Assembly: GCA_943330235.2 (NCBI GenBank)
Contig: CALQGY020000001.1
Location: forward strand, 1-64,000
Length of the DNA stretch: 64,000 bases
Source: Candidatus Kuenenia stuttgartensis
Lineage (GTDB): Bacteria; Gemmatimonadota; Gemmatimonadetes; Gemmatimonadales; Gemmatimonadaceae
Direction: 5' to 3'
Notes under the pieces: generated by a model
What the model was told of the DNA's origin: nothing
Databases searched by the model: none
What the model saw: the letters and a program-made list of their open reading frames with translations, nothing else
Shown: positions 53,582 to 60,187 of the stretch, one piece after another
Numbering within the stretch: position 1 is the stretch's first letter
Layout: every line of letters begins with the position of its first letter
Program-made: the position numbers and the translations under genes

Positions 53582-53929
53582 GTGCCTGCCTCTCCCACGT
53601 CACTTAGCCGCAACGCCGTTGTTGCGTACGCGCCCCGCACCCTCGATCCGCTCGAACGCATTGTCCGTGCGTACGACCGTGCCATTGATGCCTGCGAGTC
53701 GTTCAACGTGGACGAGGCCCGTCAGGCGATCGGCCTGCTCCGTGCCGCGCTCGACCTCGACGGTCCGGCGTCACGCAGTTTCGATGCACTCTATGCGTGG
53801 TGTGAGGAAGCGGTGGACGGTCGCGATTTCGTTGGACCGGCCCGTACGTTGCGCGCCCTGCGCGATGCCTGGTGCCTGGCGGGGCAGCCCTCCCCGATCG
53901 TCACACGCAAAGACTGGCCGGTCTCCTAG
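53582..53929 (+). CDS. Small protein with FliS-like helical pattern
   Basis: DPLERIVRAYDRAIDACESFNVDEARQAIGLLRAALDLDGPASRSFDALYAWCEEAVDGRDFVGPARTLRALRDAW resembles the FliS layout; no flagellar neighbours. Confidence 0.4.
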   Translation: MPASPTSLSRNAVVAYAPRTLDPLERIVRAYDRAIDACESFNVDEARQAIGLLRAALDLDGPASRSFDALYAWCEEAVDGRDFVGPARTLRALRDAWCLAGQPSPIVTRKDWPVS

Positions 53930-54055: not shown

Positions 54056-55204
54056 ATGACCACCCCTGAAGCCCCACGGATCGGATTGGTGTTGGGCGGT
54101 GGCGCGCTCAAAGGGTTAGCGCACATCGGGGCGCTGCGCGCATTAGCCGAGGCGGGCATCCGTCCTGCCCTCTACGCCGGCACCAGCATCGGGGCGATGA
54201 TCGCCGCGGCAGCCGCCGCCGGCGTGCCCGTGGAGCATCTCGAGGAGCGTGCCCGACGGTTCAAACGGCGCGACCTCTTCCGCATCAACCACTTGGGCAT
54301 GCTGATGGACCGCATGCTCTCGCGGTCCATCTACCTGGAAGCGCCGCTCCGCGCGCTGTGCGACGAACTGGTCCCCGAAGGACAGTTTGCCGATCTAGCC
54401 ACCCCCCTGCTGGTCACGGCCGTGGATATCGACCGGGGGATCCCTGTGGTCTTCGGGCGCCCGGGGCTGAGGGATGTGCGGGTGCGCGACGCCGTCTACG
54501 CCTCCTGTGCCCTCCCCGGGTTCTTCCCGCCCGGTGTGGTCGGGGACCGGACGTGCATTGACGGCGGCACCACCGACAATCTCCCTGTGGACATCGCCGC
54601 GCTGGGGCTCGACGCCGTCATCGCGGTGGATGTCGGTATCGCCGACGTCCCGGTGACCACGGGCGTGGCCACGCAGGGATTCGCGTCGATTTTCATGCGG
54701 GCCGCCAGCATGATGATGCACGAGCAGCAGCAGCACGTCCTCGAAATGTGGACCTCGCCGCCCATGCTGCTCGTGCGCCCGACGGTGTCCCAGGTAGGCT
54801 GGTTCAGCTTCGGGCATACGGAGGAGTTGCTGGACGCCGGCTATACCGCCACACGCGACGCGCTCCGCGAGATCGAGACGATGCTGAATGCACGCGGGGG
54901 GATCTTCCCGCGACGCGAGATCAAGATCGTGGTCGATCAGGCCGCCTGCACCGGCTGCGCGCTCTGTGTGGCGCGCGCGCCGGACATCATGACCATCGAC
55001 GCCGCGCTCAAGGCGCACCCGATCACCCCGCGCCACGAGTGGTCCCCGGCCGATGGGGCCTTCGTGCGCTGCTGCCCCGTTGGGGCGATTCATGTGGTGG
55101 AACCGACCGCCAATGTGTGGCGAGACGACGGCCCACCCCCGATATTTCCGGAAGCCTCGTCGGTACCGAGTGTTCACCAGCATGGTGGCTCCGCGGCGCG
55201 ATGA
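54056..55204 (+). CDS. Patatin-like phospholipase with C-terminal [4Fe-4S] ferredoxin domain
   Basis: [31 protein letters not shown] (GxSxG), [10 protein letters not shown] (DGG/DGA-type); C-terminus [24 protein letters not shown]...[15 protein letters not shown] (CxxCxxC...CP). Confidence 0.88.
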
Positions 55205-57976: not shown

Positions 57977-58894
57977 GTGCCTCACGACAGCATGCAGCGG
58001 CTCGGCGGTCCCATTCACCTGCTGGTCAATCCGGCCGCAGGTGGTGGGCGTGCGGGACATTCCATCGACCGGGCCTACGCCGCGTTGCGGACCGTAGGTC
58101 CGGTCGAGTTGGTTGAGTCGACGTGCGCCGGCGATGAACGGCGTCTCGCGGCCGAGGCGCATCAAGCCCGCGCACGGGCGCTGGTCGTGCTGGGTGGTGA
58201 TGGCTCCCTCTCGCACGCGGCCCGCGGACTCATCGCCGCCCGCTCGGCGACCCCGCTGTGCGTGTTCGCCGCGGGCACCGGCAACGACTTCGCCAAGTCG
58301 CTCGGTGTGCCGGCGCACAATTTTCTCGCGATGGCGCGCCGGCTTGAAGCCGGTACCGTGCGCTCCATCGACGCCGGTGAGATTGACGGCGTGACCTTCA
58401 TCAACGCCGCGGGCTTCGGCTTCGACGTGGATGTCCTGCAGCGCATGCGCGAGCCGCGCCGCCGGCCGTTGCTGCGTGGGACGCCGCGCTACGTCGTCAC
58501 CGCACTCCAGCAGCTCTTCCGGTACAGCGGCTTACACGCCACCGTCCCCGTCCTTCGAGACGGTGCCTCGTCCCACTGGCTCACCGTCGTCTTTGCCAAC
58601 GGGCAATGGTTTGGCGGCGCGTTTCATATCGCGCCGGCCGCGCACGTGAGTGATGGGACGCTCGATCTGGTCGGTATTGCGGACGCGTCCCCGCTCACCC
58701 GCGCGGGACTCTTTGCTCGGGCGCTCCGCGGGAAGCATCTCTCGCATCGGGCCGTGCATACGCAGCGCGGGACCGCCTTTGTGATCACCTTCGTGGAGCC
58801 ACCGCATTTTCAGGCCGACGGGGAATTGCATCAGGCGTCGGGCCCCAGTGTCAGCGTCCGGTGTCTCCCGCAGGCCCTCCGCGTGGTCGGATAA
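57977..58894 (+). CDS. Diacylglycerol kinase-family lipid kinase
   Basis: HLLVNPAAGGGRAGHSIDRAYAALR...ALVVLGGDGSLSHAARGLIAARSATPLCVFAAGTGNDFAKSLG. Confidence 0.92.
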   Translation: MPHDSMQRLGGPIHLLVNPAAGGGRAGHSIDRAYAALRTVGPVELVESTCAGDERRLAAEAHQARARALVVLGGDGSLSHAARGLIAARSATPLCVFAAGTGNDFAKSLGVPAHNFLAMARRLEAGTVRSIDAGEIDGVTFINAAGFGFDVDVLQRMREPRRRPLLRGTPRYVVTALQQLFRYSGLHATVPVLRDGASSHWLTVVFANGQWFGGAFHIAPAAHVSDGTLDLVGIADASPLTRAGLFARALRGKHLSHRAVHTQRGTAFVITFVEPPHFQADGELHQASGPSVSVRCLPQALRVVG

Positions 58895-59021: not shown

Positions 59022-59615
59022 ATGTCGGTCTTCACGCGGTTCGCGCGCCTGTCTGTAGCTGCGGTATCCTCGTTCGCGGTCGTCGCCGTTTCGTCGGCGC
59101 ATGCGCAGGCGGCTCCCGCCGCTCCTGCTGCCGGCGTGTTGAAGGTCGGTGACATGGCGCCGGACTTTACCGTCGCCACCGTGACCGCCGCTGGTCTGGA
59201 GGCTAAGCCGTTCAAGCTCTCCGAGCACCGTGGCGAAACGGTCATCCTCGCGTTCTTCCCGAAGGCGCGCACGCGCGGATGCACCATGCAGATGGAGTCA
59301 TACCGCGACAAGTACGCCGACCTGTTCAAGAGCGGCAAGAAGGTGACGCTGGTGGGCGTCAGCGTGGATGCGGATAGCTCGCTCACGTCATGGGCAACGG
59401 ATGCCAAGTTCCCGTTCCGCTTCGCCGCGGATGTCGATCGCAAGGTGGGCGTGGCGTTCGGCGCCAGCGAAGGCACGGGCGTGCACAAGCGCTACCTCTA
59501 CGTGATTGACCCGAAGGGCAAGATCTCGTATGTCGCGACGCCGTTCCTGCAGATGTCCGCGGATGCCTACACGGAACTCGGCGCTGCGGTGACGCAGGCC
59601 GGCGGCGCGAAGTAA
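59022..59615 (+). CDS. Secreted peroxiredoxin (AhpC/TSA, Bcp-like), copy 1
   Basis: Signal peptide; LKVGDMAPDFTVATVTAAG...VILAFFPKARTRGCTMQMESYRDKYADLF (PxxxTxxC). Confidence 0.9.
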   Translation: MSVFTRFARLSVAAVSSFAVVAVSSAHAQAAPAAPAAGVLKVGDMAPDFTVATVTAAGLEAKPFKLSEHRGETVILAFFPKARTRGCTMQMESYRDKYADLFKSGKKVTLVGVSVDADSSLTSWATDAKFPFRFAADVDRKVGVAFGASEGTGVHKRYLYVIDPKGKISYVATPFLQMSADAYTELGAAVTQAGGAK

Positions 59616-59620
59616 TCGTG

Positions 59621-60187
59621 ATGACCACGCGTCATTCCCTGCGCGCGCTCGTCACCGCCGCGTTGATTGGCGCGAGTACGCTCGCCTCGGCGCGTCGCGC
59701 CGAGGCGCAGACGCTCAAAGTCGGCGACATGGCCCCGGACTTCACCGTGACGACGGTCACGGCCGCGGGCGTGGAGTCGAAGCCGTTTCATCTCGCCGAG
59801 CATCGTGGCGAGACGGTCGTGCTGGCCTTCTTCCCGAAGGCCCGCACTCCCGGCTGCACGACGCAGATGGAGTCGTATCGCGACCAGTACGCCGCGCTGT
59901 TTCAGGGCGGCCGAAACGTGGCGCTCGTGGGTGTCAGCACGGGTGGCACGAGTTCGCTGATCGCCTGGGCCAAGGACGACAAGTTTCCGTTCCGCTTTGC
60001 GGCCGACGAGGACAAGGCGGTTGGGAAAGCCTACGGCGCGAGCACCATCCTCTGGCACAAGCGTCATCTCTACGTGATTGATCCCGCGGGAAAGATCGCG
60101 TACATCGCGACGCCATTTCTGCAGATGTCCGCCGACGCCTACACCGCGCTGGGGAAGGCCGTCAGTGCCGCCGGCAGCACGAAGTAG
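59621..60187 (+). CDS. Secreted peroxiredoxin (AhpC/TSA, Bcp-like), copy 2
   Basis: LKVGDMAPDFTVTTVTAAG...VVLAFFPKARTPGCTTQMESYRDQYAALF; close tandem paralog of 59022-59615. Confidence 0.9.
   Translation: MTTRHSLRALVTAALIGASTLASARRAEAQTLKVGDMAPDFTVTTVTAAGVESKPFHLAEHRGETVVLAFFPKARTPGCTTQMESYRDQYAALFQGGRNVALVGVSTGGTSSLIAWAKDDKFPFRFAADEDKAVGKAYGASTILWHKRHLYVIDPAGKIAYIATPFLQMSADAYTALGKAVSAAGSTK

What the first reader, a model, noticed from the sequence alone, without database searches (positions are those of the whole stretch)
54056..55204. Patatin-like phospholipase fused to a C-terminal single-cluster ferredoxin domain
The sequence shows a complete patatin-like domain ([22 protein letters not shown]) followed by [13 protein letters not shown]...CCPVGAI, the ligand pattern of a [4Fe-4S] ferredoxin. 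A redox cluster attached to an acyl hydrolase suggests redox- or oxygen-gated lipid hydrolysis, or electron transfer linked to lipid turnover. It sits upstream of another Fe-S protein (aconitase). I do not know of a characterised example.
Basis: partly seen in the sequence, partly recalled or inferred. Interest (0 to 1): 0.72.

Follow-up and report, generated by a model that had tools for sequence, protein, structure and literature searches.

The report
Lipid hydrolase with built-in iron-sulfur domain
A bacterial fat-splitting enzyme carries, as one protein, a small iron-sulfur (ferredoxin) domain; the combination is real, kept across a whole bacterial order with all four metal-binding cysteines intact, and appears not to have been studied, so it could be an enzyme switched by iron-sulfur or redox state.

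Summary
Window 54056-55204(+) is one intact 382-aa ORF: an RssA/PlpD-type patatin domain (Pfam E 3.5e-37, complete Ser44/Asp169 dyad) followed directly by a single-cluster ferredoxin domain (Fer4_15, E 1e-6) with four Cys ligands. It is not an assembly artefact. The same fusion occurs full-length in about 126 of 300 sampled phylum genomes, all in the window's order (Gemmatimonadales by the titles of named relatives), including single-contig genomes. Across 51 members sharing down to 37% identity, all four cysteines, the catalytic Ser and the catalytic Asp are invariant. AlphaFold gives two well-packed domains (pTM 0.88) matching PlpD and Pyrococcus ferredoxin. In the 17 loci read from other families of the class the patatin is unfused, and in 14 of them it sits divergently beside a suf iron-sulfur-assembly operon. 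In the window's family the fusion gene is usually upstream of aconitase. I found no literature on it. Most likely the cluster is a regulatory (redox/oxygen/Fe-S-status) module on a cytoplasmic acyl hydrolase; electron transfer or a purely structural cluster remain open. Hydrolysis, cluster binding and gating are untested. Distribution outside the phylum could not be surveyed sensitively.

The parts
54056..55204 (+). patatin-ferredoxin fusion gene (382 aa, ATG start; alternative GTG start 54020)
54086..54598 (+). patatin (PNPLA) acyl-hydrolase domain, residues 11-181; the fold continues to about residue 272
   Evidence: PF01734 E 3.5e-37; PlpD fold match, TM 0.88 on the target
54185..54187 (+). 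predicted nucleophile Ser44 (G-T-S-I-G)
   Evidence: invariant in 51 fused sequences
54560..54562 (+). predicted catalytic Asp169 (D-G-G)
   Evidence: invariant in 51 fused sequences
54926..55096 (+). single-cluster ferredoxin domain, residues 291-347
   Evidence: PF13459 Fer4_15 E 9.8e-7; fold match to P. furiosus ferredoxin, TM 0.86 on the target, 1.6 A
54947..54967 (+). cluster ligands C298, C301, C304 (C-x2-C-x2-C)
   Evidence: invariant in 51 sequences
55073..55075 (+). fourth cluster ligand C340 (C-P; C339 next to it is not conserved)
   Evidence: invariant in 51 sequences; followed by H instead of P in L107
55269..57962 (+). aconitase gene, 64 bp downstream on the same strand; conserved neighbour in the window's family only
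   Evidence: PF00330 E 9.6e-168; 42 of 49 family loci

Best explanation
It is a cytoplasmic RssA/PlpD-like patatin acyl hydrolase with a C-terminal, rigidly docked [4Fe-4S] ferredoxin domain that works as a regulatory module. With the cluster in place the two-domain form has one activity or oligomeric state. Loss or oxidation of the cluster (oxygen, peroxide, iron shortage) changes it, tying membrane-lipid hydrolysis to Fe-S/redox status. Shown: one ORF, both folds predicted, catalytic residues and ligands invariant, one order-wide conserved architecture, Fe-S-related gene neighbours. Inferred: catalytic activity, cluster binding, and the gating itself.
For: All four ligands and the Ser/Asp dyad are invariant across 51 sequences, while the rest of the ferredoxin domain drifts faster than the patatin part (pN/pS 0.25-0.78 against 0.16-0.47); what is kept is the cluster site more than the surface. 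No flexible linker: high pLDDT through the junction (above 90 in the window protein) and pTM 0.88 in two family models. A hydrolase needs no electrons, and no reductase or P450 was recognised among the neighbouring genes examined. The unfused relatives in the class sit divergently beside a sufC-B-D-Rieske-S-U operon in 14 of 17 loci, often with under 250 bp between start codons, so the family has Fe-S associations independent of the fusion. Aconitase, a labile Fe-S enzyme, follows the fusion gene in the window's family.
Against: No direct evidence of a bound cluster, of lipase activity or of a redox effect. Conserved neighbours within one family or class can reflect shared ancestry without a functional link. 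The suf linkage belongs to unfused relatives whose orthology to the fused clade is unresolved in the tree, and the fused genes are not next to suf (the window genome's suf operon is on another contig).
Confidence: 0.42

Rival explanations
1. The ferredoxin domain is an electron-transfer or docking module: it passes electrons to a partner enzyme (for example an oxygenase or desaturase acting on the released or bound acyl chain) and the fusion brings lipid substrate and reductant together, as in P450-ferredoxin fusions.
For: The domain is a canonical single-cluster ferredoxin by fold and sequence. The profile also matches the ferredoxin part of the Methylococcus CYP51-ferredoxin fusion, 6mcw, a precedent for a C-terminal ferredoxin serving a lipid-active enzyme.
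Against: Patatin chemistry is not redox chemistry. No conserved neighbouring redox enzyme that could be the partner was recognised in the three fused families. The domain's surface is less conserved than the patatin part.
Confidence: 0.24
2. The cluster is structural: it stabilises the fold or dimer of the enzyme, as in several Fe-S-containing nucleases and glycosylases, without sensing.
For: Rigid packing and the absence of a linker; invariant ligands in a faster-evolving domain.
Against: Close unfused patatins of the same class and order fold and persist without it, so stability does not require it.
Confidence: 0.22
3. The patatin is a non-catalytic or differently acting scaffold and the fusion has a moonlighting role, for example in aconitase maintenance or iron storage signalling.
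For: Aconitase pairing in one family.
Against: The catalytic dyad and oxyanion motif are retained throughout; no aconitase neighbour in the other two fused families.
Confidence: 0.08
4. Artefact: frameshift, chimeric contig or annotation read-through.
For: None found for this gene; one truncated chimera-like relative exists in an unrelated bin (L032).
Against: The same fusion is in many independent assemblies including single-contig genomes G019, G039 and G074, under purifying selection in both parts.
Confidence: 0.01

Closest known systems
PlpD patatin domain of Pseudomonas aeruginosa (PDB 5fya/5fqu)
   Same: Closest solved structure to the N-terminal part, 33% identity, TM 0.88 on the target; same Ser-Asp dyad motifs.
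   Different: PlpD is followed by POTRA and an outer-membrane barrel (general knowledge); here a ferredoxin domain follows and the ORF ends.
RssA-type cytoplasmic patatins (NF007623)
   Same: Best NCBIfam hit over residues 8-193.
   Different: Far below the equivalog cut-off (87 against 272 bits); RssA has no ferredoxin domain.
Single-cluster ferredoxins (P. furiosus 1siz/2z8q, T. maritima 1vjw)
   Same: C-terminal domain: same fold (TM 0.86 on the target, 1.6 A) and four-Cys pattern; profile E 2e-10 to T. maritima ferredoxin.
   Different: Those are free-standing proteins of about 60 aa; here the domain is fused to a hydrolase.
CYP51-ferredoxin fusion of Methylococcus capsulatus (PDB 6mcw)
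   Same: C-terminal single-cluster ferredoxin fused to an enzyme acting on lipid (PMC9519919).
   Different: There the partner is a P450 that consumes electrons; a patatin does not.
CBASS phospholipases CapV/CapE
   Same: Patatin domain under control of an additional signal; structural matches.
   Different: Score far below the CBASS equivalog cut-off (62.8 against 200 bits); they sense cyclic nucleotides and have no Fe-S domain.

Membership tests
Patatin-like phospholipases (PNPLA, PF01734) | patatin profile match above the curated cut-off | tested here: met
   128.9 bits against 27.7; 51 of 51 members match
Patatin-like phospholipases (PNPLA, PF01734) | GxSxG nucleophile Ser and DG[GA] Asp dyad, Gly-rich oxyanion loop | tested here: met
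   S44, D169 and G170 invariant in 51; K19 and G20 nearly invariant
Patatin-like phospholipases (PNPLA, PF01734) | acyl hydrolase activity | not testable with these tools
   needs an enzyme assay
Single-cluster [4Fe-4S] ferredoxin domain (Fer4_15/Fer4_13) | profile match above the curated cut-off | tested here: met
   Fer4_15 29.8 against 22.4 bits; 47 of 51 members match at E 0.001
Single-cluster [4Fe-4S] ferredoxin domain (Fer4_15/Fer4_13) | four Cys ligands C-x2-C-x2-C...C-P | tested here: met
   invariant in 51; the Pro after the fourth Cys is replaced by His in one (L107)
Single-cluster [4Fe-4S] ferredoxin domain (Fer4_15/Fer4_13) | bound Fe-S cluster | not testable with these tools
   needs UV-vis/EPR/Moessbauer on purified protein
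PlpD-type (type Vd) autotransporters | POTRA and C-terminal outer-membrane beta-barrel | tested here: not met
   the ORF ends 35 residues after the ferredoxin domain; no such domain found
CBASS phospholipase effectors | equivalog profile cut-off | tested here: not met
   62.8 against 200 bits
Fe-S-based redox/oxygen sensors (functional class) | activity changes with cluster state | not testable with these tools
   needs assays of holo, apo and oxidised forms

The most novel reading that the evidence does not exclude
An order-wide bacterial class of acyl hydrolases whose activity is directly gated by a fused [4Fe-4S] cluster, making membrane phospholipid turnover a direct readout of oxygen or Fe-S status, derived from patatins associated with suf Fe-S-assembly operons.
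Probability: 0.35. Interest if true: 0.78.

Novelty: new variant of a known kind. Interest (0 to 1): 0.56.

Why it matters
If the cluster controls the hydrolase, it would be a direct post-translational link between oxygen/iron-sulfur status and membrane-lipid turnover, in one small soluble protein of an under-studied phylum. Even without gating, it is a conserved uncharacterised enzyme architecture that names a clear, cheap experiment. The suf-linked unfused relatives suggest a wider, unrecognised connection between patatins and Fe-S homeostasis.

Tried and rejected
(1) Assembly or frameshift fusion: rejected by conservation in many independent genomes including single-contig ones. (2) 'SufS next to the fused gene': my first clustering merged three different class V PLP enzymes. 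NCBIfam shows true SufS only in the unfused class locus tested (605 bits, cut-off 475). The neighbour in the second family is only SufS-like (about 90-110 bits), and in the window's family it is kynureninase-like. So the claim that fused genes adjoin sufS was dropped. (3) The fused gene as simple orthologue of the suf-linked patatin: the tree does not resolve it. (4) CBASS or autotransporter patatin: cut-offs or domains not met. (5) The fusion on plasmids: only partial patatin matches, none covering 80% of the query. (6) Searching another phylum through L032: not accepted by the tool. (7) Promoter/terminator and Rfam scans around the gene: nothing.

Full report
OBSERVATION. Window 54056-55204(+) is a single open reading frame of 382 codons with no stop. 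Pfam places a patatin domain at residues 11-181 (E 3.5e-37) and a single-cluster ferredoxin domain, Fer4_15, at residues 291-347 (E 9.8e-7, above the curated cut-off). The ferredoxin ligands are C298, C301, C304 and C340; C339 beside the last one is not conserved.

REALITY AND CONSERVATION. A scan of public genomes with the protein alone returned 30 loci, nearly all titled Gemmatimonadaceae, Gemmatimonas or Gemmatimonadetes/Gemmatimonadota, and 28 full-length ones align with the window from one end to the other. A profile search of 300 genomes of the phylum gave, by my count of the listed places, 78 full-length matches in the window's family (f1) and 48 in two further families of the same order (f2, f3). 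These include genomes assembled as one contig (G019, G039, G074). In the rest of the class the listed matches end near model position 270, and the 17 such loci that I read carry no ferredoxin motif. The fusion is not universal: at least 20 genomes of f1, including two near-complete members of the window's genus, have no match, and some genomes of f1-f3 have only unfused patatins.

SITES. In an alignment of 51 fused proteins from all three families (37-77% identical to the window), S44, D169 and the four cysteines are invariant. Within the ferredoxin domain almost nothing else is invariant except the A-I after C340. Counts of substitutions show purifying selection on both parts. The ferredoxin part is looser (pN/pS 0.25-0.78) than the patatin part (0.16-0.47) (synonymous differences are near saturation, so only the direction should be trusted). 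C151, next to the patatin S-x-A-L-P motif, is also invariant in the fused set but C, A or S in the unfused loci where the motif was read; its meaning is unknown.

STRUCTURE. AlphaFold2 on the window protein gives mean pLDDT 90.9 and pTM 0.88; only the last 30 residues are disordered. A separate run on a second-family member gives 89.9 and 0.88. There is no low-confidence linker between the domains. Foldseek matches the first domain to PlpD (TM 0.88 on the target) and the second to Pyrococcus furiosus ferredoxin (TM 0.86, 1.6 A); no solved chain in the listed matches is recognisable as containing both. I had no coordinates, so the distance between cluster and active site is not known.

EVOLUTION. 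A maximum-likelihood tree of the patatin parts puts the f1 fusions in one clade (SH-aLRT 92) and the f2/f3 fusions in another (99). All fused proteins lie on one side of the branch that leads to the unfused ones. This fits one fusion event in the ancestor of the order followed by vertical descent and some losses. The root is weak (one distant outgroup row), so it does not tell whether the fused gene is the orthologue of the unfused class gene.

NEIGHBOURHOOD. In f1 the aconitase gene lies downstream on the same strand in 42 of 49 loci, and within 222 bp in 30 of these; in the window the gap is 64 bp and no terminator was found. In f2/f3 aconitase is absent; the usual neighbours are tyrosyl-tRNA synthetase (named from its sequence by eye, not by a profile) and a divergent class V PLP enzyme. 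That enzyme looked like SufS in a first clustering, but NCBIfam shows it is not: it scores about 90-110 bits against a cut-off of 475, and the f1 counterpart is kynureninase-like. In the unfused class loci the neighbour is a genuine suf operon: SufC, SufB, SufD, a Rieske-type ferredoxin, SufS and SufU, all but the Rieske protein above their curated cut-offs in the locus tested. It is transcribed away from the patatin in 14 of 17 loci from three families. The window genome's own suf operon is on another contig.

MECHANISM. A hydrolase has no use for electrons, no candidate redox partner was recognised nearby, the ligand set is kept while the domain surface drifts, and the wider family associates with Fe-S functions. 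I therefore rank a regulatory cluster first (0.42), ahead of electron transfer or docking (0.24) and a structural cluster (0.22). These are inferences; neither cluster binding nor hydrolysis has been shown.

COMPARISON. By its parts this is a member of two known families: patatins, and single-cluster ferredoxins. The combination is what is unusual. Literature searches for patatin with ferredoxin, 4Fe-4S or Gemmatimonas found no description; that library is open-access only. The nearest precedent for a C-terminal ferredoxin on a lipid-active enzyme is the CYP51-ferredoxin fusion, which does consume electrons. I could not survey other phyla sensitively: the one genome-wide scan used a single protein and missed even the second family, and plasmids gave only partial patatin matches.

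VERDICT.

Noticed in passing
L085, L087-L098, L100 (e.g. L094:2-6840): Unfused patatins of the class sit head-to-head with a suf operon (sufC-B-D-Rieske-S-U) in 14 of 17 loci, often under 250 bp between starts; a patatin/Fe-S-assembly link that I have not seen described.
   Followed up: partly
L073:7118-8350, L077:4742-5935, L112:2882-4207, L117:4650-6116: A divergent class V PLP enzyme (SufS-like in f2/f3, kynureninase-like in f1) lies upstream of many fused genes.
   Followed up: partly
window 54506-54508 (C151): A cysteine next to the patatin S-x-A-L-P motif is invariant in all 51 fused proteins but C, A or S in unfused loci.
   Followed up: partly
window 53591-53926 (+): Small ORF just upstream of the fusion gene with no Pfam match.
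   Followed up: no
window 57977-58894 (+): YegS-like lipid/diacylglycerol kinase gene two genes downstream; a neighbour in about 20 of 49 family loci.
   Followed up: partly
window 59022-59615 and 59618-60187 (+): Tandem pair of AhpC/TSA-type peroxiredoxin-like genes with N-terminal signal-like stretches (the first confirmed by Pfam).
   Followed up: no
L032:130-1080: A contig binned as Polymorphobacter joins an unrelated N-terminus to a Gemmatimonadaceae-like patatin fragment; probably a chimera or contamination.
   Followed up: no
L160:7608-8291 (-): SufR-like regulator (HTH start, C-terminal Cys cluster, judged by eye) upstream of sufB in the window's genome.
   Followed up: no
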